Below are positions 20,549 through 48,618 of a stretch of DNA of 64,000 bases, one piece after another. Origin of the DNA: Actinomycetota bacterium (GTDB lineage Bacteria > Actinomycetota > Thermoleophilia > Solirubrobacterales > 70-9); the NCBI GenBank assembly GCA_018268675.1, contig JAFDWB010000016.1, positions 1 to 64,000 on the forward strand. The letters run 5' to 3'. The translations under genes and the position numbers were made by a program. Below the pieces are notes generated by a model. That model made no database searches. It worked only from the letters and a program-made list of their open reading frames with translations, and was not told the origin of the DNA. How positions within the stretch are numbered: position 1 is the first letter of the stretch; every line of letters begins with the position of its first letter.

Positions 20549-20621
20549 GGGGCTATAGCTCAGCTGGCAGAGCGCCTGGATCGCACCCAGGAGGTCGGCG
20601 GTTCGAATCCGCCTAGCTCCA
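20549..20621 (+). tRNA. tRNA-Ala, anticodon CGC (second copy); likely ICE insertion site
   Basis: 73-nt cloverleaf with acceptor GGGGCTA/TAGCTCC, anticodon stem CCTGG/CCAGG, loop ATCGCAC (anticodon CGC) and T-arm GGCGG-TTCGAAT-CCGCC. The integrative element genes start about 350 bp downstream, so this tRNA is the natural candidate for the attachment site. I did not find a second copy of its 3' end by eye within the window. Confidence 0.93.
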
Positions 20622-20698
20622 TCGAGTCGAACGCCCTGCAAACGCGGCGTTTCGCATTCCGGCAGTTCATTTGAACCACCCCCCTCTCCGGCCCCACT

Positions 20699-20718
20699 TT
20701 TGGGCACTAGTGCCCAAA
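20699..20718. promoter_or_regulatory. 20-bp perfect palindrome downstream of tRNA-Ala
   Basis: TTTGGGCACTAGTGCCCAAA is a perfect palindrome. It is followed at once by two tandem copies of GATATGCGCC (20727-20746) and two of GATTCCG (20747-20753, 20758-20764). Inverted plus direct repeats next to a tRNA are typical of integrase/excisionase or operator sites at an element end. Confidence 0.55.
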
Positions 20719-20815
20719 GTCCCGCGGATATGCGCCGATATGCGCCGATTCCGGTCCGATTCCGACTCGCTTGGTCGCCCAGCCAGAGCTACGGTCGCGC
20801 CGCCGCATCGCCGGA

Positions 20816-20976: not shown

Positions 20977-21690
20977 GTGGCGCAGGTAGAAGAGATCGCG
21001 ACCGTCCTCATCTGCGAAAAGGACGAGCGCACCCTCGAGATGCTCGCCGACCACCTCGTCGCGGACTATTTCGAGGTCCTGCCGGCATCGACGGGCGCCG
21101 ACGCACTTCGATTCTGCCGTTACAACAGCCCCGATGTCCTGGTCCTCTCGCTCGATCTGCCGGACATGCCCGGCCTCGAGGTCATCAGGACGATCCGCGA
21201 GGCCGACGGAGTCGAAGACCGTTTCGATCCGAACCTGGCGATCATTGCCCTCGTAGGCGACACCGGCGACCGGGCGCGCGTGATCCAGCTGGGCGCCGAC
21301 GACTACCTGGCACGGCAGCCCTACTCCTACGATGACCTAAAAGAGCGCATCAAGGCGATCCTGCGACGGCGTCACAACCGCCAGGCGAAACCGACCCGGG
21401 TGGGGGAGCTGCTGATCGATCCTGCGCGGCGGAAGGTCACGGTCGGCGAGCGGGAGGTCCATCTCGCGAAAAAAGAGTTCGTCCTCCTGCTCGTCCTCGC
21501 CGAGGATCCGACGCGGGTGTTCTCGAAGGACGAACTCCTCCGGGACGTCTGGGGCTTCAAGGCTCCCGCGGGCAAGACCCGGACCCTCGACAGCCATGCC
21601 AGTCGACTGCGAAGGAAGCTCGACCCCGACGACGAGAAGAAGTACGTCGTCAACTCCTGGGGCATCGGCTACAGCCTGGTGGCGCCATGA
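20977..21690 (+). CDS. OmpR/PhoB-type response regulator with non-phosphorylatable pseudo-receiver
   Basis: 237 residues from GTG 20977. The receiver domain (about 8-128) aligns with PhoB, but the phospho-acceptor Asp is Ser (PDVLVLSLDLPDMPG), the acidic pair is EK, the Thr is Val, and DYLARQPYS replaces DYxxKPF. It therefore cannot work by the usual Asp phosphorylation. The winged-helix DNA-binding domain (about 140-235, VGELLIDPARRKVTV...DSHASRLRRKLDPDDEKKYVVNSWGIGYSL) is intact. It heads a seven-gene overlapping operon; its stop overlaps the next start by 4 bp. Probably a master regulator of the element controlled by something other than a histidine kinase. Confidence 0.85.
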   Translation: MAQVEEIATVLICEKDERTLEMLADHLVADYFEVLPASTGADALRFCRYNSPDVLVLSLDLPDMPGLEVIRTIREADGVEDRFDPNLAIIALVGDTGDRARVIQLGADDYLARQPYSYDDLKERIKAILRRRHNRQAKPTRVGELLIDPARRKVTVGEREVHLAKKEFVLLLVLAEDPTRVFSKDELLRDVWGFKAPAGKTRTLDSHASRLRRKLDPDDEKKYVVNSWGIGYSLVAP

Positions 21691-22496
21691 TCTCCGCCCG
21701 CCAGATGGTCGAAGCGACGGGAGGCACCGCGGCCGCGCACGACCAAACCGCCTCGCCGGGGGATCAGCTTCGAAGGGCGCGCACCGCGATCTCGGTTGCA
21801 TTCGGCCGGGCCGCCGACCTCTTCCAGCCGTCCGCCGTAGCCGGGGGCGCCGAGAGCCGATCGGGACGCCTCGATCCGGCAGCGCGACGGCGGGTCGGCG
21901 AGAGCCTCGAAGGCGAGCTCTCCGACATGCTGGAGGACGCCGCCCAGCGCGGACTCTCCGAACAGGGAGCAAGGGCGCTCCTGCTCACCGCCGACATCGT
22001 GCGCTGGCTCCGGGAGGGCGAAGACCTCCCCGGCGACGGGGGCGACGGGGCGATCGGGTTGCTGGAAATCCACGTCGCGATCTTCAACGGCGCCCCCCAC
22101 GAGGAGGAACGCCGGTCCCAGCGGGATCTCCTCGCCGTCCTCCTGGCCCTCGTCGATGCGCAGGCCAGGGAGATCCACGGCGGTCGATGGCGATACCGGC
22201 GGGTAAACGCCGAGGCGGCCGAGAACCGCGAACGCCGGAAGTTCGGGGACGAGGTCGACCGCCTGCGCGAGTCGCTCGATCTCACCATCGGGGAGCTGGC
22301 GACGCGGGCCGATCTTGAGGTGCTGGCCGTCGTCGAACTGATCTACGCGGCAAGGGAGGCCGGCTCCTCCGAGATCCGCCTGCTCGCCGGCGCGCTCGAT
22401 GTCGAGCCGGGCGCCTTCTTCTCCGATCCCCCGGACGGTGCCGCAGGAGCCTCGTCCGGGCCGGACGCCGCCGCCGAGGACGGATGCGGCGGATGA
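21687..22496 (+). CDS. ICE protein with C-terminal helix-turn-helix
   Basis: 269 residues. The N-terminal 180 residues are helical and unassigned (SLEGELSDMLEDAAQRGLSE, then ARALLLTADIVRWLREGEDL). The C-terminus (about 190-250) reads FGDEVDRLRESLDLTIGELA and ALDVEPGAFFSDPP, an XRE-like HTH with the spacing of the other XRE domains in this element but lacking their Trp tag. ATG overlaps the regulator stop (ATGA), and its stop overlaps the next gene. A DNA-binding accessory role is inferred from the domain and the operon only. Confidence 0.72.
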   Translation: MISARQMVEATGGTAAAHDQTASPGDQLRRARTAISVAFGRAADLFQPSAVAGGAESRSGRLDPAARRRVGESLEGELSDMLEDAAQRGLSEQGARALLLTADIVRWLREGEDLPGDGGDGAIGLLEIHVAIFNGAPHEEERRSQRDLLAVLLALVDAQAREIHGGRWRYRRVNAEAAENRERRKFGDEVDRLRESLDLTIGELATRADLEVLAVVELIYAAREAGSSEIRLLAGALDVEPGAFFSDPPDGAAGASSGPDAAAEDGCGG

Positions 22497-23125
22497 GCGA
22501 CATGGATCCGCGGCCCAATAGCGAACTCGGCCCGTCGGGTCCGGTGTCCGACGACGCGGTGCTCGCGGCCGTCGCCCGCGCCGAGCGGATCGAGAGAAGG
22601 CATACGGGCGTCAGGCAGATCGCCGAACACCTCGGGTGGCGCTACAGCGGCCGGGCCACCTCCCGCCTCCGCCCTCCTCTCGCGCGCCTGGTCGACTCGG
22701 GTCTCCTCGACTCGGCCGAGGTTCCGCGCCGGAAGATCCGCTCGAAGGAATGGAAGACCACCGAGGCCGGCCGGCGGCACCTCGCCGCCGTCGGCCCGAT
22801 CGACCTCCCCGAGTCCCCGCAGCACCGGCGCTGGCGACAGGACCGCGACGTGGCCCTCTGGGCGAGGGACGCCGTCCGCGCCGAGGCGCTGATGGTCGTC
22901 GATCAGGCGTACGACCTCCTCCGGGATCCGCCGGCCAGCGGTCCCCTCACCGAAGGCGAACGCCTGAGGCTCACGCGCCGGTTCGAAGCCGCGATGAAAG
23001 CCCACACCCTGGCGAGATGGATGTGCGAGTGCTGGACGGAGCCCACCGACGACGCCCGCGGCGAGGACCCGGACAGCGTGACGCAGCTTCTTCCCCACCT
23101 ACCCGAACGACAAAGGAGTGCTTGA
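22493..23125 (+). CDS. ICE winged-helix protein of unknown function
   Basis: 210 residues from ATG 22493 (overlapping the previous stop); an earlier in-frame ATG at 22484 is possible. Residues about 20-100 look like a winged helix (RQIAEHLGWRYSGRATSRLRP, LVDSGLLDSAEVPRRK, TTEAGRRHLAAVG). A helical C-terminal half follows, with Trp/Cys-containing MKAHTLARWMCECWTEP. No family recognised beyond the wHTH. It ends with TGATG overlap to the next gene, which has an AAAGGAG ribosome site. Confidence 0.65.
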   Translation: MSDMDPRPNSELGPSGPVSDDAVLAAVARAERIERRHTGVRQIAEHLGWRYSGRATSRLRPPLARLVDSGLLDSAEVPRRKIRSKEWKTTEAGRRHLAAVGPIDLPESPQHRRWRQDRDVALWARDAVRAEALMVVDQAYDLLRDPPASGPLTEGERLRLTRRFEAAMKAHTLARWMCECWTEPTDDARGEDPDSVTQLLPHLPERQRSA

Positions 23126-23547
23126 TGGGACAGACGACGACCCTGGACCGCGACGCCAGGGACACCTTGGTCGACCTGATGGTCTACCGCTACTTCGTCA
23201 GCGCCGACCTCCGGGTCATGCGCGAGTGCGAGCGGGGTATCAGCGACGAGCTCGTCGCGGCCTGGTTCGCCGACGACAGGGCTCTGATGCTGGATCTCGA
23301 CTGGCTCAAACGATGGTGCCTCGGCATCCTCGGCCTGCCAGGCGACGAGGAGAACGAGTTCGAGTTGCGCCGTCTCCCCGCCGAGCGGCTGCGCCCCGCG
23401 ATCGAGCGAGCGCTGGCGGACGCCAAGGCGGCATCAGCCGCGGGCGAGTCCCCGCTCGACGGCAGCCCCGACGACCTATTCGACCGGGCCGCGCAGGTCT
23501 GCGAAGCCCTTCTGGAAGAAATCGACAAGACGGAAGCCTCAGCATGA
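23125..23547 (+). CDS. ICE protein of paralogous family A (copy 1)
   Basis: 140 residues. It is a clear paralogue of the minus-strand gene at 28526-28924. Both have RxxRxxLVxLMxYRxFV near the N-terminus, LMxDLxWLxRWxLxxLGxP in the middle, EFxxxxxPxRLRxA, and a C-terminal ExL/LEE helix. No known domain is recognised; the Trp- and Leu-rich core suggests a small all-helical soluble protein. It is coupled by overlap on both sides. Two copies on opposite arms of the element suggest they act as partners or antagonists. Confidence 0.65.
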   Translation: MGQTTTLDRDARDTLVDLMVYRYFVSADLRVMRECERGISDELVAAWFADDRALMLDLDWLKRWCLGILGLPGDEENEFELRRLPAERLRPAIERALADAKAASAAGESPLDGSPDDLFDRAAQVCEALLEEIDKTEASA

Positions 23548-23951
23548 GCACCAAGAACGACTCGAAAGCGAAACCGCAGACCAAGAGCAGTCCGAAAGCG
23601 AAACCGCGGACCAAGCCGGCGAAGTCGAAAGGCGGCCGATCGGCGGGCAGGAGTCCGGCCAAATCCAAGGCGGCCAGGGCGAAACCCGCGAAGCCGCAGA
23701 CGAACCGCGCCGGATCCAAGAGGCTCCGGCCGGGGGAACTCGATGGCCTCGTCATCGACTACATGCGGAAAAGCGAGGACGCCCTCCCGCTTGGCGCCAG
23801 CGCCATCGCCAAGGCCATCGACCGCTCGTCGGGGGCGGTGGCAAACTGCCTCGAGCGCAAGGCAAACGCCGACGACAGCCCGGTCAGGCGGGCCAAGGAC
23901 AAGCCGCGCGCATACGACCTGAAAGGCGAGCCGGCCGAGAAGCCGTCGTGA
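23544..23951 (+). CDS. Lys-rich tail plus winged-helix DNA-binding protein
   Basis: 135 residues. The first 65 are a Lys/Ala/Ser/Pro tail resembling histone H1 or Lsr2/HU extensions (KPQTKSSPKAKPRTKPAK). The rest is a winged-helix-like domain (LDGLVIDYMRKSEDALPLGA then SAIAKAIDRSSGAVANCLER). It is probably a nucleoid-type or sequence-tolerant DNA-binding protein of the element. ATG overlaps the previous stop; the next gene begins with GTG overlapping this stop. Confidence 0.7.
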   Translation: MSTKNDSKAKPQTKSSPKAKPRTKPAKSKGGRSAGRSPAKSKAARAKPAKPQTNRAGSKRLRPGELDGLVIDYMRKSEDALPLGASAIAKAIDRSSGAVANCLERKANADDSPVRRAKDKPRAYDLKGEPAEKPS

Positions 23952-25672
23952 CCGAAGCGCCCGATCCGGCCGAGACCCCCGAGGTCGACACCGACCTCGT
24001 CCAGTCCGTCGTCGACGATCCCGACGACGGACACCTCGAGCCGGGCCAGCTCGTCCCCACCGGCGGCGTCCCACTTCAGCTCGGCGGCAACATCGCCGAG
24101 CTACGCCGAGCGGCGGGCGTCACGCAGGGGGAACTCGCCGCGAGGTCCGGCATCACGCAGGCAGCCGTCAACTACTTCGAGGCCGGGCGCCATATCCCGA
24201 CCCTCCTCGTCGCCTTGAAGATCGCGGGTTCCCTCGACACCGGGATCGACCGACTCACCGCCGGGATCTTCTGGAATCCCGGCCGGCTGGGCTCCGACCG
24301 CTCGGCCTCGGGACTTCGGGCGGTTCGGTCCCAGGGCTACTTCTCCACCCGTCCTGCCCATCTGCGGGCGGACGTGCCCTCCCTCCCGGTCTTCAGCCAG
24401 GACGAGGTCGCGGCCGTCATCGGCCACAACGTCAGGGCGGCGAGGCGTAGCCGCCATATCTCCCAGAGGGACCTCGGGCCCACCATCGGACTGGAACAGA
24501 CCCACGTCTCGAAGATCGAGCTCGGTCAGATCGAACCGACGTTGACGACGGTGATCGCGCTCGCGCGGGAGTTCGAGGTGGCGGTCGGAGCCCTGCTCGA
24601 CGGCATGCATTGGGGCGAGGTCGGTCCGGCCGACGCATGGGGGGAGGCGGCGGGCCGCCGTGGGCGGACGCGCGAGCTTCACTCGCTCGACGCCCTGGTC
24701 CTTCGAGGATGCCGCGAAGGAAAGGCGCCGTCGACGATCGCCAGAGAAGCATCCGCCGATGAGCCGACGGTGCGCAGATGCATCGAACGGCTACGCAGGA
24801 AGGGCCGCAGCCTGGACGCCGACCCCGCCACCTGGACGGAGGAGGATCTCGCGGACGAACTGGCACTCCGGCACGAGGAAGAGCTGCGTGCGAGCGATCC
24901 AATCGAGGAGAAGGACGCCGCGAAGGTCGTGGCGGGACACCTCCGCCGCCACCGTCGTAAGCAGGGCATCAGGCAGGAACCGCTCGGTGCATTGGGCGGG
25001 TTCTTCTCCGCCAACTCGGTTTCCCAATTCGAGAGGTTCGGCCCGAACTTCTTCCTCACGCATCTCGTCCGCCTCGCCGCCTCGCTGCGGGTGCCCTGCT
25101 CGGCTTTGACGGCGGGGCTGCGATGGGACCACTTCGCTGGGTCCTTCCTGCTCGCCCGCCACCCGCGGCTCCCGGACCGCTCGCCCGCAGCGGTGACCGG
25201 TAGGAACGCCCGGCGGATCCGACAGTCGGCGCGTCTCGCCGAAACCACGGTCGCCCGCCGTGTCAACCGGCGAAGCAACTACTTCAACGCCCTGGAGCAC
25301 GGCCGGAGCACGCCCCGCCCGATCTCCTTGTTGATGCTGGCCCGGGCGCTCGAGGTGGAGGTCGAGGACCTTCTCGAGGGCGTGCGCGACTGGTACGTGC
25401 GGCCCCTCCTCCCCCTCGCGATGACGGAGGCCGAGGAGGCCGCCGAGACGGCCTCGCGGCAGGAACAGCTCCTGCGACTCTGGAACCAAAACGTCGACCT
25501 TCGCGGCATCGCCGACGCCCTCGAGATGAAACCGCAGACCGTATTCGCGGTGGTCAACAGGCTGCGGGATGTGGGGGTCGACGTGCCCTACAGGAAGGCG
25601 CCGTTGACCCCCGCGCGGCTCTCAGAAAGGCTGCGGCGGCGGCGGGCGAGCCGAGCCCTGGTCACCCGCTGA
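23948..25672 (+). CDS. giant regulator with four XRE helix-turn-helix domains (copy 1)
   Basis: 574 residues. XRE domains lie at about 47-112, 157-224, 328-396 and 416-484. Two further HTH-like segments lie at about 243-285 (APSTIAREASADEPTVRRCI) and 497-550 (LRGIADALEMKPQTVFAVV). Each XRE domain ends in a variant of LxxGxxW (LTAGIFWNPG, LLDGMHWGE, LTAGLRWDH, LLEGVRDWYV). The overall layout is repeated in the next gene. Four tandem XRE units in one chain could bind four operator half-sites and bridge or loop DNA. GTG start overlaps the previous stop; the next gene starts 8 bp on. Confidence 0.82.
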   Translation: MTEAPDPAETPEVDTDLVQSVVDDPDDGHLEPGQLVPTGGVPLQLGGNIAELRRAAGVTQGELAARSGITQAAVNYFEAGRHIPTLLVALKIAGSLDTGIDRLTAGIFWNPGRLGSDRSASGLRAVRSQGYFSTRPAHLRADVPSLPVFSQDEVAAVIGHNVRAARRSRHISQRDLGPTIGLEQTHVSKIELGQIEPTLTTVIALAREFEVAVGALLDGMHWGEVGPADAWGEAAGRRGRTRELHSLDALVLRGCREGKAPSTIAREASADEPTVRRCIERLRRKGRSLDADPATWTEEDLADELALRHEEELRASDPIEEKDAAKVVAGHLRRHRRKQGIRQEPLGALGGFFSANSVSQFERFGPNFFLTHLVRLAASLRVPCSALTAGLRWDHFAGSFLLARHPRLPDRSPAAVTGRNARRIRQSARLAETTVARRVNRRSNYFNALEHGRSTPRPISLLMLARALEVEVEDLLEGVRDWYVRPLLPLAMTEAEEAAETASRQEQLLRLWNQNVDLRGIADALEMKPQTVFAVVNRLRDVGVDVPYRKAPLTPARLSERLRRRRASRALVTR

Positions 25673-25680
25673 GGATCTTG

Positions 25681-27462
25681 ATGCACGCCGAAAGCGGCCA
25701 GGCCGAAGTGCTCGACGGCGATGGAGGCGTCATCGCGGTCGAGGCTCAGTCGGAGGAGGAAGCGCAGGAGACCGGGGCCGGGAGTCCTGCCTTCCGGCGC
25801 CTCGGCTCGAACCTCCTCGGTCTGCGGGAGGCCGCGGGGAAGACGCAGGAATCGCTCGCCGCCAAGGTGGGCGGCCCCGACAGTCACCTCGGGTCGTCCT
25901 GGGTATCGCAGCTGGAGGCGGGGAGGGCCCAGACCGGAATCCTGCAGGGCCTGCGGCTGGCGGCGGCGCTCGACTCCTCCATCGACGAGCTGCTGGAGGG
26001 GATCTTCTGGAATCCCGGGGAGATCGCCCGCAAGCCAAGAGAGAAGAAACCCGACGCCGAACGTCTGGCGGGCTACCTCACGGTCCTGCCGCCGGGTGAG
26101 CCCGCCTTCGAAGAAGCCCCCGAGGTGGTAACCGTCGAGGACCGCAAGGACGTGGCCGCGGTCATAGCCCGGAACGTCAGGGACGCACGGACCCGTCGAC
26201 ACCTTCGACAGCGCGATCTCGGACTGGCCGACACCTCGGCGGCGGGACTGATCGAGTCCGGCATCCGCCAACCTGAGCTGCAGGGCCTGCTGACGATCGC
26301 CCGCTCCCTCGAGGTGCCCACCGAGTTCCTCCTGCGAGGGATGAGGTGGGAGCCACCCGATCTGAACCCGGGGATCGCGAGGGGGCGCGGGCGACGCCAC
26401 GACTTCCACGCCCACGACGAGGCGGTCACGAGACTCTGGCGCGACGACCTGACGGCGGCCGAGATCGCCGTCGAGATCGGCATCACCCAGCCCTCGGTGG
26501 AAGGCATCGTCCGTCGGCTTCGCGCGCGGGGCATCTACCTTCCCTCCCGGGTGGCCGGACGCCGCTCCGCGGGCGCCGCCCCGGCGGAGGACGCATCGGG
26601 GTTCCACCGTCGCCCGGCGCCCGACGCCGAAGACGTCGGCAGGCTGCATGACCGGATAGCGGCCAACCTGAAACGGCACCGCCTCGCCGCCGGCCTCAGC
26701 CTCGAACAACTCGCCGAAGCGACCGAGATGAGGCTGGACAACATCTGGCGCGCAGAGACCCAGCGGTCCGAACCGAGGCTGATGACGGCCGTCCGCCTCG
26801 CGGCGGGACTCCGGGTTCCGCTCGCGGCGATCACCCGAGGAATCACCTGGGACCCGGCGACCGACGCTCTCGGGCTCGAGGGCCAGGCGGAAGGATCGGA
26901 GCCGAGGTTCGGACCGAGGCTGGGGGCGAACATCCGCCGGCACCGGCGCCGGCTCGGCCTCTCACAGGAGGAGGTCGCGGCCAGGACCGGCATCTTCCGC
27001 CGGCACTTCAGCGCGATCGAGTCGGGTGCCGCCCTGCCCCGACCGATGAACCTTCTGGTCCTGGCCCACGGCCTCGAGGCCGACCTCGCCACGCTGCTCG
27101 CCGGAACCTGTGACTGGTATGTGCGGCCCCTGCCGCCGCCCGAATACGCCGACGGCGAGGGGCCGCCGACGAAGGCGGAGCGACAGGAGCGCCTCCTGCG
27201 CATGTGGGGCCAGGGGGCGAGCACGCGGTCGATCGCGGACGCCCTGGACCTGACGCCCTCGGCCGTCGGCGGGGTGATCAACGAAATGCGCGCGGTCGGG
27301 ATCGACGTGCCCTACCGCCACCCACCGACCAGCGCGGCCCAACTGTCGGGCCGGCTGCGCCGCCGCCGACGTGCCCGGCGACGGCCGGCGGTGGCGGCGA
27401 TGAGCGCGCCTCCTCCGAAGGCTCCGCCCAAATCAGCCGATCCGGGCGGGTGGCCGGCGTGA
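25681..27462 (+). CDS. giant regulator with four XRE helix-turn-helix domains (copy 2)
   Basis: 593 residues from ATG 25681 (GAGGA ribosome site 5 bp upstream; a TTG one codon earlier is possible). It has the same architecture as the preceding gene: XRE, XRE, HTH (TAAEIAVEIGITQPSVEGIV), XRE, XRE, C-terminal HTH (TRSIADALDLTPSAVGGVI). XRE tails read LLEGIFWNPG, LLRGMRWEP, ITRGITWDP and LLAGTCDWYV. The C-terminal DWYVRPLPPPE and VGIDVPYRHPP blocks are nearly shared with copy 1, so the two genes arose by tandem duplication and then diverged. Last gene of the plus-strand operon, followed by hairpins. Confidence 0.82.
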   Translation: MHAESGQAEVLDGDGGVIAVEAQSEEEAQETGAGSPAFRRLGSNLLGLREAAGKTQESLAAKVGGPDSHLGSSWVSQLEAGRAQTGILQGLRLAAALDSSIDELLEGIFWNPGEIARKPREKKPDAERLAGYLTVLPPGEPAFEEAPEVVTVEDRKDVAAVIARNVRDARTRRHLRQRDLGLADTSAAGLIESGIRQPELQGLLTIARSLEVPTEFLLRGMRWEPPDLNPGIARGRGRRHDFHAHDEAVTRLWRDDLTAAEIAVEIGITQPSVEGIVRRLRARGIYLPSRVAGRRSAGAAPAEDASGFHRRPAPDAEDVGRLHDRIAANLKRHRLAAGLSLEQLAEATEMRLDNIWRAETQRSEPRLMTAVRLAAGLRVPLAAITRGITWDPATDALGLEGQAEGSEPRFGPRLGANIRRHRRRLGLSQEEVAARTGIFRRHFSAIESGAALPRPMNLLVLAHGLEADLATLLAGTCDWYVRPLPPPEYADGEGPPTKAERQERLLRMWGQGASTRSIADALDLTPSAVGGVINEMRAVGIDVPYRHPPTSAAQLSGRLRRRRRARRRPAVAAMSAPPPKAPPKSADPGGWPA

Positions 27463-28525: not shown

Positions 28526-28924
28526 TCATCTCTCTCCTCCTCGTTCCAGTTCTTCGAGGACCCGCGAGCAGGATCTTCCGGCCTGCTCGAAGACCTCGCG
28601 CTGCTCGTCGTCGACGCTCGGATCGCACCGGCAGGCCTCCTCGGCGTAGCGGGCCACCCGCCTGAGCGCCCGCCGCAGCCGATCAGGCTCCAGCGAGAAG
28701 CCGAACTCGGCCTGGTCGGCCTCGGGCATCCCAAGCTCGATCAGCCACCATCGAGGCAACCAGGCGAGGTCGGTCATCAACTGGAGATCGTCCCGGTAGC
28801 GGGCGATCGGCGCTTCGTCGGGATACTCGTCGTCGAGCCCGGTCTCGCCTCCCACGAAGAACCGATAACCCATCAACTCCACCAGCGCGTTTCGGCCCTC
28901 TCGGTCGATGGTCGGCGCGCTCAT
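28526..28924 (-). CDS. ICE protein of paralogous family A (copy 2)
   Basis: 132 residues, paralogue of the plus-strand gene at 23125-23547: TIDREGRNALVELMGYRFFV, then LMTDLAWLPRWWLIELGMP, then LEPDRLRRALRRVARYAEEA. It has an extra acidic insertion (GLDDEYPDEAP) after the first block. Function unknown. ATG overlaps the stop of the upstream gene (ATGA). Confidence 0.65.
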   Translation of the reverse strand: MSAPTIDREGRNALVELMGYRFFVGGETGLDDEYPDEAPIARYRDDLQLMTDLAWLPRWWLIELGMPEADQAEFGFSLEPDRLRRALRRVARYAEEACRCDPSVDDEQREVFEQAGRSCSRVLEELERGGER

Positions 28925-29238: not shown

Positions 29239-29615
29239 GCCTCCTCCGAGGGCGTGCTGCTTGCGCTCTCGGCAGTTGCCTCTACGACTTGGCCGTCGGG
29301 GTCCACGCCGAGGACGGCGAGCGCCCACGGCTCCTCGACTGTCGGGGAGTAGAAGTGCTGCATGGATCCGCGCACCGGCTTCTGGTCGACCAGCGCCACG
29401 GCCCCGTGGTCGGCAAGCACGCGGACGTGGTAGCTGACGTTCGAGAGCGGCTCTTTCAGCACTTCCGACAACCGGCGGGGGCTGATCGCGGCGCCCTCCT
29501 CGAACATCGCCCGGAGGATCTGCCTCCGCAGCTCATGGCGCAACGCGACGAGCAGGTCGGCCTCGGCCTGCCCGCCACCCGCACCGCGCACGACGACCTG
29601 TTTCCCTTCACCCAT
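29235..29615 (-). CDS. ArsR-like winged-helix regulator in the ICE
   Basis: 126 residues from ATG 29615. The winged helix is clear: ALRHELRRQILRAMFEEGAA, ISPRRLSEVLKEPLSNVSYHV, RVLADHGAVALVDQ, and a wing ending RGSMQHFY. No Cys metal site is seen. Stand-alone HTH of this form usually represses its own operon. It overlaps the XRE gene by 8 bp and the next gene by 4 bp. Confidence 0.8.
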   Translation of the reverse strand: MGEGKQVVVRGAGGGQAEADLLVALRHELRRQILRAMFEEGAAISPRRLSEVLKEPLSNVSYHVRVLADHGAVALVDQKPVRGSMQHFYSPTVEEPWALAVLGVDPDGQVVEATAESASSTPSEEA

Positions 29616-29925
29616 CCTGACCGCCTCCCGTGGTCGTCCAACCCGCCCCGCCCTCGGCGGACGGGTCCCACCTGATTCCGTCGAAGAGGTCCTCGACTTC
29701 GACGCCGAGCGCGCCTGCGAGCAGGTAGATGACGTCCACCTCCACCTTGCGCCGGCCGTCCAGAAGTTCGTCCAGTTCCCCGAGGTCGAGTTTCGCGCGG
29801 GCCGCGAGCGTCTCCTTCGAGTACCCGCGCTCGCGTCGCAGCGATTCAACCCTCTCGGAGAAGTTGACGCGGGCGGGCGGCACGGGTCCCTCGACCCTGC
29901 ATCCCGGATTCGGTGACACGCTCAT
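29608..29925 (-). CDS. single-domain XRE regulator with GIRWDP tail
   Basis: 105 residues. The XRE HTH lies at about 20-88 (FSERVESLRRERGYSKETLA, KLDLGELDELLDGRRKVEVD) and ends VEDLFDGIRWDP, the same tail as the eight XRE units of the giant regulators. The C-terminal 17 residues are Gly-rich. Probably a local regulator or heterotypic partner of the giants. Overlaps both neighbours. Confidence 0.8.
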   Translation of the reverse strand: MSVSPNPGCRVEGPVPPARVNFSERVESLRRERGYSKETLAARAKLDLGELDELLDGRRKVEVDVIYLLAGALGVEVEDLFDGIRWDPSAEGGAGWTTTGGGQDG

Positions 29926-31645: not shown

Positions 31646-31859
31646 CGACGTCACTCCTCTCGTTCGGGTTTGGGTCCCCCGCCCGCGGGCTTCGCGGGAT
31701 GCGGGGGCGTTGGTTCTTCTTCTTGGAGATGGTCGAGGTCCGCCTTTCGGGGGCGGAGAGCGTCGGGCCCCATCTGGTGCTCCTCACCCGGGGGCTCAAC
31801 TCCGGCGAGAGCCGCCGCGACGAGGGTTCAGGCCCGCCTCCTCGCATCAGGAGGGTCAT
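31623..31859 (-). CDS. possible small basic protein coupled to the integrase
   Basis: The ATG at 31859 overlaps the integrase stop by 4 bp, the same coupling seen throughout the element. The frame runs 78 codons (MTLLMRGGGPEPSSRRLSPE, then TSTISKKKNQRPRIPRSP) and overlaps the start of the next gene by 23 bp. The peptide is very basic and disordered. Excisionase genes are often small and basic, but no HTH or fold is visible, so this is only a candidate gene. Confidence 0.33.
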   Translation of the reverse strand: MTLLMRGGGPEPSSRRLSPELSPRVRSTRWGPTLSAPERRTSTISKKKNQRPRIPRSPRAGDPNPNERSDVDERCRRR

Positions 31860-33559
31860 GCGACAAGCCTCAACTTGCGCTCGATCTGTTGCGGCTCGGC
31901 GGCAGCGGGTGGCGCCTCGGCCAGGCGGGGAGTCGTGATCTTGGCCACCGGAGACCGCGCGAGTTTCGCCCTCCCGATCTTCGTTAGCTTCCACTCGCCC
32001 CGGCCGCCGCCGGCTTCGATCCAGCCCTTCTGCGTGACGCCTATCCAGGCCTTGCCGACGCGCGGTTTCCATCGCGGCTGCCCGCTCGGGAGCTTCTCCA
32101 GATCCCGGGTGCCGTGGCGGCCGTCGAATTCCTCGCCGATGGCCCTGACGACTTCGCGCTTCTGGGCTCGGCCGCCCAGCTCGGCGAGCCCCCGCAGGAT
32201 CGGTACCTCGTAGTCGTCGAGGGCGACCACTTCGGGGAGCGGCGCCTCGACCGTGAGTACCCGTTCACCGGCGACCAGGGCCTTGAGGCGCCTGCGCTCA
32301 TCGTCGCCGCGCGCCATCATGTGGGTGTAGACCTTCAGCGTGAACTTGGGGTCGGTGTGCCCGAGCGCTTCCATCACCGTCTTCGGGTCCTTGCCGATCG
32401 CGACGAGGATCGAGGCGAAGGTGTGGCGGAGCTTGTGCGGGGTGACGCCGAGCGGCAGGGGCAGGTGGTCGCGTTCGAGGAGGACCTGATCGGCGCGGCG
32501 CAGCGCGGCGGCGATGACGCGGTTACGCAGGTTGTCCTTGTCGCGCCTGCCGCCGGTCCCGGTCGGGAAGACGAGATCGTCGGGTCCGGTGCGATAGGCC
32601 CGCGCCTTGTGAGCGACCAGCCTCTTCCGCAGGGCCGGCAGCATCGGGATCTCCCGGAGACCGGCAGCGGTCTTCGAGCGGCCGATGAAGATCCTCTCGT
32701 TCAGCAGGTCGACGTCGCGCCAGAGGAGGTTGCCGAGCTCATGGGCGCGGGGGCCGGCGAAGAGCAGCGTCGCGACCATCGCCTCGCGTTCGGAGCAGTG
32801 ATAGCGCGGCTCGCGGTCCAGCTCGGCGCAGGCGACGAGGAGGCCGTCGATCTGCTCGGCCGTATCGAGATGGACGGGCCGCTTCTCCGGCTCGACCAGC
32901 CGGCGGGCTTTTCCGGCCGCTTCATTTTCGGTGACCCCGGTCTGCTTCTTGTATTCGACCGCGATCCCGAGGATCCATTGGAGGATGTCGACGGTCTTGT
33001 TGATCGACGCCGGCGCCAACGGCTTGCGGACCTGTCCGCGGCCGTCGCGCAGCGGACGGCCACGGTCGACGGCCGCCGCGAATCGCTCGGACTCCTTGAC
33101 CTTGTGGGCGACGTAGGCGTCGACCAGGACGTTGTCGATGTCGAGGAGGTAGTCCTCGCCGAAGAACGGGATGAGGTGTCTCAGCCCCCATTCCCGGTAG
33201 TCGTGCTGGCTCTCGGAGACCCGGCCCTTCCTGTCTGCGACGACGCCCTTCGCGAAAGGTCCGAAGAGGATCGGCTCGTCGTCGTCGCCCTCGCTGATCT
33301 GAAGGCCTCCGACCAGCGTCGTCGCCGCGCTCTTCTTCTTCGTCTTCGGCGGCGGGGTCCAGAGGTTGCGCCGGACGTCGGCAAGTGTGTTGTCGAGGAT
33401 TTCGCCCGCGCGCTCGTCGTCGAGCGGCGGCGTGCCCTCGCCTTCGTAGCCGAGGGTCAGGTAGCGGCGCTCGCCGTAGGCGCGGAAGCGGAGCGCGAAT
33501 TTGCGACCCTTCCTATTTTCCCGGACGATGACCTCGCCTTCCTTCTGGCGCCTAGCCAT
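31856..33559 (-). CDS. int: tyrosine recombinase (ICE integrase) with extra C-terminal winged-helix-like domain
   Basis: 567 residues. An AP2-like N-terminal arm-binding part (FALRFRAYGERRYLTLGYEGEG) is followed by a SAM-like core-binding domain (about 105-235) and a catalytic domain (about 245-420). The catalytic set is Arg in AGPRAHELGNLLW, Lys in SKTAAGLREIP, His-x-x-Arg in HKLRHTFAS, His in GHTDPKF, and the nucleophile Tyr in LKVYTHMM. Unusually, about 110 residues follow, containing KREVVRAIGEEFDG, GQPRWKPRVGKAWIGVTQKGWI and GEWKLTKIGRAKL, which resemble the Mrr N-terminal winged helix. It overlaps the upstream XRE gene by 8 bp. It should integrate the element, probably at a tRNA. Confidence 0.92.
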   Translation of the reverse strand: MARRQKEGEVIVRENRKGRKFALRFRAYGERRYLTLGYEGEGTPPLDDERAGEILDNTLADVRRNLWTPPPKTKKKSAATTLVGGLQISEGDDDEPILFGPFAKGVVADRKGRVSESQHDYREWGLRHLIPFFGEDYLLDIDNVLVDAYVAHKVKESERFAAAVDRGRPLRDGRGQVRKPLAPASINKTVDILQWILGIAVEYKKQTGVTENEAAGKARRLVEPEKRPVHLDTAEQIDGLLVACAELDREPRYHCSEREAMVATLLFAGPRAHELGNLLWRDVDLLNERIFIGRSKTAAGLREIPMLPALRKRLVAHKARAYRTGPDDLVFPTGTGGRRDKDNLRNRVIAAALRRADQVLLERDHLPLPLGVTPHKLRHTFASILVAIGKDPKTVMEALGHTDPKFTLKVYTHMMARGDDERRRLKALVAGERVLTVEAPLPEVVALDDYEVPILRGLAELGGRAQKREVVRAIGEEFDGRHGTRDLEKLPSGQPRWKPRVGKAWIGVTQKGWIEAGGGRGEWKLTKIGRAKLARSPVAKITTPRLAEAPPAAAEPQQIERKLRLVA

Positions 33560-33878
33560 TCTGGTCCGACCCCCCCGGCACGGCCACCTTCAGTCCCCCG
33601 CTGATGGCGACGATCGGGTCCCAGGTGATCCCGGCGACTAGGTCGTTCGGGGTGACCCCGAGAGCGCCGGCAAGTTTCACCACAGTTTCGAACCGCGGCA
33701 GCCTGTTCCCGTTCTCGAGGAGGCTGATCCGCGTCCGATGGATTGCCGACCGGAACGCCAGCTCTTCCTGGGAGAGGCCCCCCTCTTGGCGGAGGCGGCG
33801 GAGATTCGCGGCGAAGCGGTCCGCCATTGCCAGCGGAGCCGCACGCCGTTCTTGGCCTGGCGCAGCCCTACCCTCCAT
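33552..33878 (-). CDS. XRE regulator with GITWDP tail, upstream of the integrase
   Basis: 108 residues from ATG 33878 (GAGGAGG site); ATG 33827 is a shorter alternative. The HTH domain FAANLRRLRQEGGLSQEELA, FRSAIHRTRISLLENGNRLP ends NDLVAGITWDP as in the other XRE proteins here. Its stop overlaps the integrase start, so it is probably the switch controlling integration and excision. Confidence 0.85.
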   Translation of the reverse strand: MEGRAAPGQERRAAPLAMADRFAANLRRLRQEGGLSQEELAFRSAIHRTRISLLENGNRLPRFETVVKLAGALGVTPNDLVAGITWDPIVAISGGLKVAVPGGSDQNG

Positions 33879-34008: not shown

Positions 34009-34396
34009 CACTTTCTCTTGGCGCGTTGACGTTAGCTCTGGTTCGCGACGAAAGCGAGTCGGAATTGCGGGAGGCGTTGATCCAGCGTGAGCGCGGGAGA
34101 TCGGTCCTCGCCCGACGCTCGCAATCGGGCGGCCCGAGGCGACGGATGAGGACTTTCACGTCGAACCGCAGACGTGGCCGGGGCCCGTCCCCGAGCGGGA
34201 TCGCACCCAGCTCGTCGGCGTGCTCATAGACCCAACGGCGCTGCACGCCCCAGCGACGGGAGACCTCCGCGGCGGGGATGATCTCGGGTTCGTCGAGGAG
34301 GTGGCCGTCCTTGATGAGCTCGGCCAGGCGGACCGCGAGGGCCTCGATCGACTCCGGCGCCAGTCGCAGCTCGGTGGGTGCGCCCGCGGCGCTCAT
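33989..34396 (-). CDS. small HTH (excisionase-like) protein, last gene of the transfer operon
   Basis: 135 residues from ATG 34396, overlapping the methyltransferase stop. The core (PEIIPAAEVSRRWGVQRRWV then YEHADELGAIPLGDGPRPRL) is a MerR/excisionase-type winged helix, a form common in actinobacterial mobile elements. The C-terminal 35 residues are basic and probably disordered. A promoter-like sequence for the XRE-integrase genes seems to lie inside its 3' end (34029-34058). Confidence 0.72.
   Translation of the reverse strand: MSAAGAPTELRLAPESIEALAVRLAELIKDGHLLDEPEIIPAAEVSRRWGVQRRWVYEHADELGAIPLGDGPRPRLRFDVKVLIRRLGPPDCERRARTDLPRSRWINASRNSDSLSSRTRANVNAPRESVSGAAR
34029..34058 (-). promoter_or_regulatory. 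weak third copy of the ICE promoter motif
   Basis: The minus strand has CCAGAGC directly before TAACGT (34029-34034), as in the copies at 27699 and 31035, but the -35 position reads CTCGCT instead of TTGACT. Its place fits the XRE-integrase transcript. Poor -35 match suggests activator dependence or no function. Confidence 0.3.
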
Positions 34397-35544
34397 CTTC
34401 GCGGTTGGCCCGCTGGAGCGCGCCGGGAGCGGGTACGGGGTGGCCGCGCCGAAGAGCTCGCGGCGCACGGCGACCCATTCGCGCCCAACCCTCCCCAGTG
34501 CCGGATCCTGGCGGCGGCGATCCCGAGGTAGTTCTTGTCAATCTCGATCCCGCAGAAGCGCCGGTCCTCGAGGGTGGCCGCCACCCCGGTGGTGCCGCTG
34601 CCCATGAACGGGTCGAGGACGAGGCCGCCTCCAGGGCAGGCGAGGCGCACGAGCCACCTCATCAGGTCGATCGGCTTCAAGGTCGGGTGCGGATTCGTGA
34701 CCATCCCGCCCCGGCTCGCGTTCGGAAGCAGGTTCAGGAAGGTCTCGGGGAGGTCCTCGCAGCCGGCGTCGCGCTCGGCGCGGGTCGGCTTCGGGCAGTA
34801 GAGAAAACGCGAGGGGGCGAGCTGGGGCACGGTTCCCCCCTCCCCTCCTTCGGCCGCGACGTCGAGCAGCCCCACGGCGCAACCCGGGGCGCAGGACCCC
34901 TCGGCGCAGCCGGGGTCGTGTGAGATGAGGCCGTTGCCAGGGAGTCGGCCCTCGACCCGACAGGCCTCGGCCTCGAGGGCGCCGGTCCCGTGGACGGCGA
35001 TCGTCTCCTCGGTGGTGCCGTCGAGTGGCCGGCGCGCCAGGACTATCGGCTCGAGGACCGGCTTCAGGGCGGTGCGGCGGCCGTCTGGGTAGCGACGCGA
35101 CTTCGCCATCCCCGACGAGTAGAGCCACATCAGGGTGTCCCGGATCTCAAGGCCCGCGTCCTCGAGGCCGGCGGCCAGACGGTGATACGTCCTGGGTGAG
35201 CCGAAGGCGAGAAGGAAGGCACCCGGTTTCATCGCCCGCAGGCAACCCGCCCCCCACAGGGAGCACCAGACCTCGAACGCCTCCGGCTTCGAGAGCCGGC
35301 CGTGTCCGTGGCGGGCCGCGGCCTCGCGGATCGCGCCGGCGTCCCAGCTCTCGTTCTGCCAGCCGATCGCGTAGGGCGGGTCGCAGACGACCGCGTCGAC
35401 GCTTCCCTCCTCCAGTCCCGAGAGCACCTCGATGCAGTCGCCCTGGATCAGGCGCGGTCCACGGGCGCCCGTGCTGGCCCGTCCGCAGACAGCTCCCCGG
35501 CGCCGCTTCCCCGCGGGTCGACGTTCGTTCCTCGTGGCCGCCAC
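34393..35544 (-). CDS. DNA methyltransferase of the transfer operon
   Basis: 383 residues from GTG 35544 with a GGAGGG site. Motif IV is DPPYAIGWQNESWD at about residue 45, and motif I (DPFMGSGTTGVAATL) is near the C-terminus, the beta-class order of N6-adenine/N4-cytosine methyltransferases such as HinfI. The target-recognition part between them includes a Cys-rich loop (CAEGSCAPGCAVG). No restriction enzyme is adjacent, so it may protect transferred DNA from host restriction or act in regulation. The end overlaps the next gene by 4 bp. Confidence 0.88.
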   Translation of the reverse strand: MAATRNERRPAGKRRRGAVCGRASTGARGPRLIQGDCIEVLSGLEEGSVDAVVCDPPYAIGWQNESWDAGAIREAAARHGHGRLSKPEAFEVWCSLWGAGCLRAMKPGAFLLAFGSPRTYHRLAAGLEDAGLEIRDTLMWLYSSGMAKSRRYPDGRRTALKPVLEPIVLARRPLDGTTEETIAVHGTGALEAEACRVEGRLPGNGLISHDPGCAEGSCAPGCAVGLLDVAAEGGEGGTVPQLAPSRFLYCPKPTRAERDAGCEDLPETFLNLLPNASRGGMVTNPHPTLKPIDLMRWLVRLACPGGGLVLDPFMGSGTTGVAATLEDRRFCGIEIDKNYLGIAAARIRHWGGLGANGSPCAASSSARPPRTRSRRAPAGQPRR

Positions 35545-35546
35545 CT

Positions 35547-36446
35547 TCAGCCCTCCTCTTCTCGTTTGCCAAGCCAGTCGACCGTCTGCCCCGGGTCGCG
35601 GAGCGAGCGGAAGATCGGTGCAAAGGGGCCGCGCGCGACCAGCTCCCCCAGCAGGCAGACCCGGACCTCTACCTCCGGGGTCCGGGTCAGCTGCGGTTCT
35701 GCGCGTAGCAGCGCGAGCGCGGTGTCCCGGCGGCGTCTCAGCACCTCGCGGTCTCCTCCTGCGAGCACGCAGACGACGCTCGGGAAGGTCGGATAGCGCG
35801 AACGCCAGACCGGCCCGGCCTCCTCGTCCCCCGCCCTGAAGAGGTCGGCGTAGCGGGCCAGCTCGGCGGCCATCGCGTCGACCGGCAGGGTCGCCCGGTC
35901 GAGCTCGAGGAAGCGCTGCTCGACGAAGACTTTCCCGCCCGCGCTCCTTATATAGGTGAGGAGAGCGTCGGAGATGACCGAGCGCGAGCGCCGGCGACGG
36001 CCGCCGTCGAGGAAGGAGTGGGCGACCTCGTTGCGCCAGGCCAGGGGGCCGAAGTCGTCGCCCTCGCGCCGGGCGGCGCGGAGGAAGCTGATCGCCGCCT
36101 CGTTGACAGCCACCGTGTGTGCCTGCAGAGGTCCGACCACCTCCCCGGCCTCGAAGACGCGGGGCATGCGCGGCAGCGCGCCCAGCCCGACGGCCGCCCG
36201 CGCGCCTGCCTCGGTCGCGAACCAGAGCCGCTGCGGGGAGCCGCCCGCCGTGCGTACGTGGTCGATCAGGCCGGCGGCCGCGATCCGCCCGAGGACCCGG
36301 CGCGACCACCGGGCACCCGTGCCGGGCATGTGCATCTCGCCGATCTGCTCCCTGGAGAGCGCTCGGTGGGCGGCGACCGAGGCGACGATCTCGATCGCCG
36401 CCCTCGGCAGGCCTCCTCCTCCCCCCGACTGGGGTCCGCTCGTCAC
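35547..36446 (-). CDS. replication-relaxation family protein
   Basis: 299 residues. The N-terminal winged helix (EIVASVAAHRALSREQIGEM, ARWSRRVLGRIAAAGLIDHV, SPQRLWFATEAGARAAVGLG) and the following HTVAVNEAAISFLRAAR and LAWRNEVAHSF segments match the replication-relaxation (Replic_Relax) family known from actinobacterial and firmicute ICEs and plasmids. It is thought to act at oriT or replication start with a relaxase. GTG overlaps the coupling-protein stop. No separate relaxase is seen in the window, so this protein may take part of that role. Confidence 0.8.
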   Translation of the reverse strand: MTSGPQSGGGGGLPRAAIEIVASVAAHRALSREQIGEMHMPGTGARWSRRVLGRIAAAGLIDHVRTAGGSPQRLWFATEAGARAAVGLGALPRMPRVFEAGEVVGPLQAHTVAVNEAAISFLRAARREGDDFGPLAWRNEVAHSFLDGGRRRRSRSVISDALLTYIRSAGGKVFVEQRFLELDRATLPVDAMAAELARYADLFRAGDEEAGPVWRSRYPTFPSVVCVLAGGDREVLRRRRDTALALLRAEPQLTRTPEVEVRVCLLGELVARGPFAPIFRSLRDPGQTVDWLGKREEEG

Positions 36447-48360: not shown

Positions 48361-48618
48361 GTCCGCCTTCTCGGCGGCTGTCGGAGGAACAGAGGGACGG
48401 GATCAGGAAGTGGTCACAAACGTACTCATCACCGTTTGTGTCTCGAAGAGGACGAGGTGGAGAACGCCGGATGGCCTGGACGCGAGAGTGTCTCTGCTCG
48501 CTCCAGGTCACACCTTTGACCTCAAAGGTCATGGCTAAAGTCACATCTCATGTCATCTCCACCAAAGGTGTCATTGGCCTCTGGAGAGTGATGCGCGTCG
48601 CTGCTACTGTCGCCAGGG
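48361..48618. promoter_or_regulatory. divergent control region of the transfer operon
   Basis: 258 bp between oppositely directed genes. It holds CACAAACG/CGTTTGTG (48415-48422 with 48433-48440), a perfect palindrome ACCTTTGA-CC-TCAAAGGT (48512-48529), and a further half-site CAAAGGTG at 48563-48570. GTCA-containing steps recur between 48507 and 48575. The base composition drops compared with flanking genes. These are good candidates for operators controlling both directions. Confidence 0.6.

What the first reader, a model, noticed from the sequence alone, without database searches (positions are those of the whole stretch)
23948..27462. Tandem giant regulators, each with four XRE domains and two more HTH segments
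Two adjacent genes (574 and 593 codons) share the order XRE-XRE-HTH-XRE-XRE-HTH. Single-chain proteins with four XRE units are rare. They could bind arrays of operators or bridge distant sites such as the hairpin and palindrome regions at both element ends. This looks like an undescribed class of ICE regulator.
Basis: partly seen in the sequence, partly recalled or inferred. Interest (0 to 1): 0.8.

Follow-up and report, generated by a model that had tools for sequence, protein, structure and literature searches.

The report
Fused multi-XRE regulators of mobile elements
Two neighbouring genes of a conjugative mobile element in an actinobacterium each encode a protein carrying four DNA-binding-type (XRE) units plus two other helix-turn-helix units, and they appear to be fused versions of the rows of separate small XRE regulators that related elements carry at the same place.

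Summary
Both ORFs (574 and 593/594 aa) are real, sit in one tightly overlapping operon and share the order XRE-XRE-HTH-XRE-XRE-HTH plus an Arg-rich tail. A model trained without them finds exactly four XRE units in each (39-63 bits; best of 1000 shuffles 6.1), and AlphaFold2 models agree. The same tandem pair lies in a second ICE of this genome; fragments of two more copies occur in a congener, Solirubrobacterales bacterium 70-9. Nothing comparable turned up in the ~1,000 genomes searched, in two scans of 84,980 genomes, or in viral, phage and plasmid collections.

The new point is their origin. Related elements carry, after the same response-regulator genes, arrays of 3-5 separate, overlapping ~100-aa single-XRE genes. 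The giants look like fused arrays: each unit position forms its own supported group and different positions are only ~25% identical. Not all units look canonical: the first protein keeps strong units 1-2, the second strong units 3-4.

Most likely they are multivalent regulators of the ICE, but DNA binding is inferred. Bridging the two cited DNA regions is not supported: 48.4 kb is not an element end, and the left palindrome is an integration-site feature also present in elements where no giant was found.

The parts
23948..25672 (+). giant regulator 1 (P1), 574 aa, XRE-XRE-HTH-XRE-XRE-HTH plus Arg-rich tail
24065..24289 (+). P1 XRE unit 1 (res 40-114), canonical, HTH_3 47.1 bits
24395..24625 (+). 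P1 XRE unit 2 (res 150-226), canonical, HTH_3 44.4 bits
24665..24823 (+). P1 HTH segment 1 (res 240-292), winged-HTH-like in the model
24899..25141 (+). P1 XRE unit 3 (res 318-398), weak in Pfam (15.8 bits), fold kept in model
25172..25411 (+). P1 XRE unit 4 (res 409-488), 22.7 bits, ends in the DWYVRPL motif
25415..25606 (+). P1 HTH segment 2 (res 490-553)
25678..27462 (+). giant regulator 2 (P2), 594 aa from TTG (593 from ATG 25681), same architecture
25786..26025 (+). P2 XRE unit 1 (res 37-116), insertion within the HTH, 29.9 bits
26140..26352 (+). P2 XRE unit 2 (res 155-225), short deletion inside the HTH, 13.9 bits
26392..26550 (+). P2 HTH segment 1 (res 239-291)
26632..26865 (+). P2 XRE unit 3 (res 319-396), 37 bits
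26902..27135 (+). P2 XRE unit 4 (res 409-486), 46 bits, ends in CDWYVRPLPP
27139..27330 (+). P2 HTH segment 2 (res 488-551)
27331..27387 (+). Arg-rich C-terminal segment (RLRRRRRARRR), conserved in all copies
20977..21690 (+). OmpR-type response regulator, first gene of the operon (ORF open from 20671; start uncertain)
21687..22496 (+). operon gene 2; homologue also precedes a single-XRE array on contig C89
22493..23125 (+). operon gene 3, PadR-like winged helix (weak Pfam match); homologue also precedes an XRE array in genome G031
23125..23547 (+). operon gene 4, 'LVDLMxYRFF' protein of unknown function
23544..23951 (+). operon gene 5, Lys-rich protein (winged-helix-like by sequence inspection)

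Best explanation
The two genes encode paralogous, multi-unit regulators of an ICE family in Solirubrobacterales. Each is a covalent fusion of four already diverged XRE units with two extra HTH modules and an Arg-rich tail. Related elements encode the same kind of XRE units as 3-5 separate overlapping genes behind the same response-regulator genes. Most likely the two proteins are made together from the ICE regulatory operon and bind composite operators of the element through whichever units remain competent: mainly units 1-2 in the first protein and 3-4 in the second. The remaining units, the conserved post-XRE motifs (IFWNPG, DWYVRPL) and the HTH modules would serve pairing, spacing or weaker contacts. 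The result would be cooperative, probably repressive, control of the operon and of transfer or excision, set by the response regulator. Shown by computation: architecture, operon, conservation in ICEs with a shared backbone, purifying selection, position-specific units, equivalence to arrays. Inferred: DNA binding, the operators, the repressive sign, hetero-assembly, and fusion rather than fission.
For: Four XRE units per chain, tested with a non-circular model and AlphaFold2. Operon with 4-bp overlaps running from an OmpR-type response regulator into the giants. The same tandem pair in a second ICE on contig C55 with shared integrase (66%), relaxase (72%), coupling-type protein (76%) and VirB4-type ATPase (87%); the end of a second-type giant on two contigs of G011. 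Purifying selection on the P2 C-terminal part against G011: dN/dS 0.27 (NG86) or 0.085 (YN00). Arrays of 3-5 adjacent single-XRE genes in relatives, several with a response regulator 49-62% identical to the window's and one next to related relaxase and coupling genes, G003:C146. Each unit position is its own supported group in a 90-row tree, and mean identity is 40% at the same position against 25% between positions. Arg-rich tails are conserved. The host element encodes integrase, Replic_Relax, AAA_10/VirB4 type, TcpC and CHAP proteins.
Against: No binding, expression or genetic data. Several units are degenerate, so the XREs could be mainly protein-protein modules. The complementary pattern of the window pair is not repeated in the C55 pair. 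No candidate operator was found only in ICEs with giants: both conserved sites have other plausible owners. The unit tree is short and its root arbitrary, so fusion versus fission rests on distribution. The 74 single units were collected with a profile of the giants, so the array sample is not unbiased.
Confidence: 0.58

Rival explanations
1. DNA-compacting or silencing proteins: with several weak DNA-binding units and an Arg-rich tail, encoded next to a Lys-rich protein, they coat or bridge ICE DNA with little sequence preference.
For: Arg-rich tails; Lys-rich neighbour gene conserved with the pair in the C55 ICE; degenerate units.
Against: Most XRE units carry little net positive charge (-4 to +9); strong canonical units remain; relatives use discrete single-XRE genes that look like specific regulators.
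Confidence: 0.17
2. Scaffolds or decoys: the XRE units act mainly as dimerisation modules that capture the single-XRE regulators of the same or competing elements, with little direct DNA binding.
For: Insertions or deletions inside HTH motifs of several units; post-XRE motifs IFWNPG and DWYVRPL are better conserved than the HTH motifs; the ICE also encodes single-XRE proteins (29608-29925, 33552-33878).
Against: Each giant of the window keeps two well-scoring XRE units and two HTH modules; no interaction data.
Confidence: 0.15
3. The giants bridge the palindrome at 20699-20718 and the palindrome region at 48415-48570 as the two element ends.
For: Both stretches contain inverted repeats; the operon starts just downstream of the first.
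Against: 48.4 kb is not an element end; the two palindromes differ in sequence; palindrome 48512-48529 is absent in the C55 and G011 ICEs; the left palindrome occurs in several elements of genomes where no giant was found.
Confidence: 0.05
4. Assembly or annotation artefact: separate genes joined by sequence errors.
For: Draft assembly; single-XRE arrays exist in relatives.
Against: Two ICEs on separate contigs of this assembly carry two such genes each with the same architecture, plus ends in another assembly; HTH modules and linkers are conserved; purifying selection.
Confidence: 0.02

Closest known systems
Single-XRE (Cro/C1-type, Pfam HTH_3/HTH_31) regulators in tandem gene arrays of the same genus and family
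   Same: Same unit (five helices followed by an L..G..W.P motif), same position behind the response-regulator genes, similar number of units
   Different: Separate ~100-aa proteins, no intervening HTH modules and no Arg-rich tail in the array genes read
Two-domain HTH_XRE regulators of phage WO (Wmk family), which exist as single-domain genes in other WO variants (PMC9203015)
   Same: Adjacent single-XRE genes of a mobile element fused into one chain in relatives
   Different: Two units rather than four, no extra HTH modules, unrelated hosts, best NCBIfam score far below cut-off (32 against 300 bits)
Controller proteins C.AhdI, C.BclI, C.Esp1396I; SinR, DdrO and ImmR DNA-binding domains
   Same: Fold of the individual XRE units
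   Different: One XRE per chain; known (from general knowledge) to act as dimers or tetramers of identical chains
GcrA-type / homeodomain-like HTH
   Same: Weak profile match of the HTH segments of P2 (Pfam GcrA; PDB 7ye1)
   Different: Only the first ~60 residues match and isolated segments score below the Pfam cut-off
HEPD/MPnS dioxygenases, which appear in the fold search with matches spanning two XRE units
   Same: Two XRE-like folds in one chain, seen in fold search
   Different: Enzymes with cupin domains; poor overall superposition (rmsd 12-14)

Membership tests
XRE / Cro-C1 (Pfam HTH_3, HTH_31) | sequence profile above the Pfam cut-off | tested here: met
   Whole proteins 104 and 77 bits for HTH_3 against a cut-off of 23; as isolated units, met for P1 units 1-2 and P2 units 1, 3, 4; not for P1 units 3-4 and P2 unit 2
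XRE / Cro-C1 (Pfam HTH_3, HTH_31) | five-helix fold | tested here: met
   AlphaFold2 models and structural alignment of each P1 unit
XRE / Cro-C1 (Pfam HTH_3, HTH_31) | specific DNA binding | not testable with these tools
   needs binding experiments
Wmk family (two-domain HTH_XRE of phage WO) | NCBIfam NF047948 cut-off (300 bits) | tested here: not met
   32.4 and 14.3 bits
RstR-type single-XRE repressors | NCBIfam NF041951 cut-off (80 bits) | tested here: not met
   78.4 and 68.7 bits summed over units; length and architecture also differ
GcrA | Pfam GcrA score and full-length match | tested here: inconclusive
   P2 whole protein 28.2 bits against 26.9, but only ~60 of 155 positions; isolated segments 17.0 and 14.4 bits
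Fused XRE arrays of this ICE family (proposed here) | four position-specific XRE units plus two HTH modules in one chain | tested here: met
   P1, P2 and the C55 pair
Fused XRE arrays of this ICE family (proposed here) | located in a response-regulator operon of a conjugative element | tested here: met
   window and C55; upstream part not assembled in G011

The most novel reading that the evidence does not exclude
A pair of regulators in which an operon of distinct XRE subunits has been welded into two chains that divide the work: the first reads DNA mainly with its N-terminal XRE pair, the second with its C-terminal pair. Together they would act as a multi-site operator reader controlled by a response regulator, a multivalent kind of ICE switch not described before.
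Probability: 0.25. Interest if true: 0.65.

Novelty: new variant of a known kind. Interest (0 to 1): 0.52.

Why it matters
XRE repressors normally work as dimers or tetramers of one small protein. Here a mobile-element family shows both states side by side: rows of separate, diverged XRE genes, and chains in which four such units are covalently linked. That makes it directly testable whether these arrays work as hetero-oligomers, and what is gained by fusing them. It also gives a first view of regulation in conjugative elements of Solirubrobacterales, for which one literature search found nothing relevant.

Tried and rejected
Bridging of the palindromes 20699-20718 and 48512-48529: different sequences, the second is not conserved and is not an element end. 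The CACTAGTG palindrome as the giants' operator: also present in elements with no XRE operon next to them and in genomes without detected giants. The conserved site 48411-48439 as a giant-specific operator: also upstream of TcpC in G008:C9, a genome where no giant was detected, and an ArsR-type gene lies next to it in the four ICEs with giants. Origin by duplication of an XRE-XRE-HTH half: units 1/3 and 2/4 are hardly more alike than other pairings (25.0% and 27.3% against 23.2-26.8%). Wider distribution: plasmids, phages, IMG/VR and two scans of 84,980 genomes gave only a contig of Solirubrobacterales bacterium 70-9; 400-genome samples of the class and phylum gave at most two XRE units per chain. 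Literature searches for multi-XRE proteins found only the two-domain phage WO case as relevant. BFVD lists phage 'repressor' models of 247-430 aa aligning over several HTHs; their sequences could not be read, so multi-HTH chains elsewhere are not excluded.
Full report
What was checked. The window is part of contig C7 of a 4.2-Mb draft genome. One pattern scan of 84,980 genomes named the only other carrier found: Solirubrobacterales bacterium 70-9, whose contig (number 278, 27,886 bp) matches contig C278 of genome G011, a member of the window's genus. The two ORFs of the finding are exactly where stated and close an operon whose genes overlap by about 4 bp: response regulator, a 269-aa protein, a PadR-like protein, an 'LVDLMxYRFF' protein, a Lys-rich protein, giant 1, giant 2.

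Architecture. Pfam hits HTH_3/HTH_31 several times in each chain. To avoid circularity I trained an HMM on 74 single-XRE units from relatives only; it finds exactly four units in both proteins and in the C55 pair, 19.6-63.1 bits, against at most 6.1 bits in 1000 shuffles. AlphaFold2 models (mean pLDDT 66.8 and 68.6) show four five-helix bundles, two three-helix HTH segments and a C-terminal helix, joined by low-confidence linkers. In giant 1, structural alignment puts solved XRE proteins on all four units and winged-helix proteins on the first HTH; these Z-scores (7-8) are moderate. In giant 2 the listed matches fall almost entirely on unit 4, so its other units rest on sequence and the model.

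Not all units are equal. Scored alone, units 1 and 2 of giant 1 are canonical (47 and 44 bits) while 3 and 4 are weak (16 and 23). In giant 2 units 3 and 4 are strong (37 and 46), unit 1 has an insertion (30) and unit 2 a deletion in the HTH (14). The homologous pair on C55 is degenerate in a different pattern. The claim 'four DNA-binding units' is therefore shown for the fold, not for function.

Where else. A second ICE in the same genome (C55) carries the same tandem pair and neighbours. G011 has the end of a second-type giant on two contigs, each followed by ICE genes in the same order. The four elements share integrase, relaxase, coupling-type, VirB4-type and (in three read here; the fourth) TcpC proteins at 66-94% identity. 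Giant 2 and its G011 counterpart are 76% identical with dN/dS 0.27 (NG86) or 0.085 (YN00), so the protein is under purifying selection. In 50 family, 399 class and 396 phylum genomes nothing else approaches these proteins; the best others are two-XRE chains.

Fused arrays. Many loci of the genus and family carry 2-5 adjacent single-XRE genes on one strand, often overlapping by 4 bp. Several follow the same genes as the giants do: C89 of this genome (response regulator 49%, second operon gene 41%, four XREs), G008:C189 (response regulator 62%, four units in three genes), G003:C146 (response regulator 57%, at least five XRE genes, on an element with related relaxase and coupling genes), G031:C142 (PadR-like 40%, four XREs). 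In a tree of 90 units each of the four giant positions forms its own supported group, and different positions within one protein are as far apart (25.3%) as different positions in different proteins (25.1%). So the chain was most simply assembled once, from diverged units, before the pair duplicated and the ICE lineages split. Fusion rather than fission is inferred from the wide occurrence of the single state and the narrow occurrence of the giants. Phage WO offers a parallel: single-domain HTH_XRE genes in some variants, fused two-domain genes in others (PMC9203015).

The proposed targets. The 20-bp perfect palindrome 20699-20718 lies ~78 bp inside the tRNA-Ala 3' end. Palindromes with the same CACTAGTG core and symmetrically changed arms lie at a similar distance from tRNA-Ala, -Thr, -Gly and -His 3' ends in elements of this and related genomes, including elements with no regulator operon beside them. 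This is best read as part of an attachment region. The 48.4-kb stretch is the upstream region of the transfer operon; further attachment cores are at C7:78150 and C7:85625. Within it, 48411-48439 is strongly conserved in ICEs with giants, but a form of it also lies upstream of TcpC in a genome where no giant was found, and an ArsR-type gene is its neighbour in the ICEs with giants. Neither site can be assigned to the giants.

Mechanism. The best-supported reading is a multivalent ICE regulator made from fused XRE units and set by the response regulator of the same operon. DNA binding, targets and sign are inferred. Compaction and scaffold models remain possible.

Limits. Draft MAG-type assemblies; the G011 copies are truncated at contig ends; the genus is thinly sampled; the array survey started from hits to the giants; structures have modest confidence from shallow alignments (4-5 sequences).

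Noticed in passing
window 20549-20764; also C7:78150-78300, C55:24115-24260, C55:42573-42770, L086, L082, L083, L084: A ~200-bp left-end module shared by elements in tRNA-Ala, -Thr, -Gly and -His genes: tRNA 3' end, a GAAG.CCCTGCAAA-like block, ~80 bp on a perfect palindrome with constant CACTAGTG centre and symmetrically changing arms (7-16 bp), then GGATA/GCGGAT-like repeats in most. Probably an integrase/excisionase attachment region.
   Followed up: partly
window 48411-48439: Strongly conserved 29-bp site (TGGTCACAAACGTAC...TTTGT) upstream of TcpC and the transfer operon in three ICEs, with variant forms in G011:C82 and G008:C9; candidate operator, possibly of the adjacent ArsR-type gene.
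   Followed up: partly
C7:20549 to C7:78150 and C7:85625 (beyond the window): The mobile element probably extends past the window to ~78 kb and is followed by a second smaller element using the same tRNA-Ala core.
   Followed up: partly
window 31856-33559 (-): Tyrosine recombinase with a C-terminal Mrr_N domain, located inside the element ~11 kb from the left end.
   Followed up: no
window 34393-36720 (-): 775-aa frame matching a DNA methylase (N6_N4_Mtase) that overlaps the relaxase gene in another frame; one of the two readings needs care.
   Followed up: no
L029:12690-15386 (-) and L031:1475-4066 (-): An 863-898-aa protein without Pfam match, conserved (78%) beside the giants in the C55-type ICEs and not found in the window ICE.
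   Followed up: no
window 23125-23547 (+) and 28526-28924 (-): Paralogous 'LVDLMxYRFF' proteins of unknown function on both sides of the giant genes; a homologue lies in the C55 regulatory operon.
   Followed up: partly
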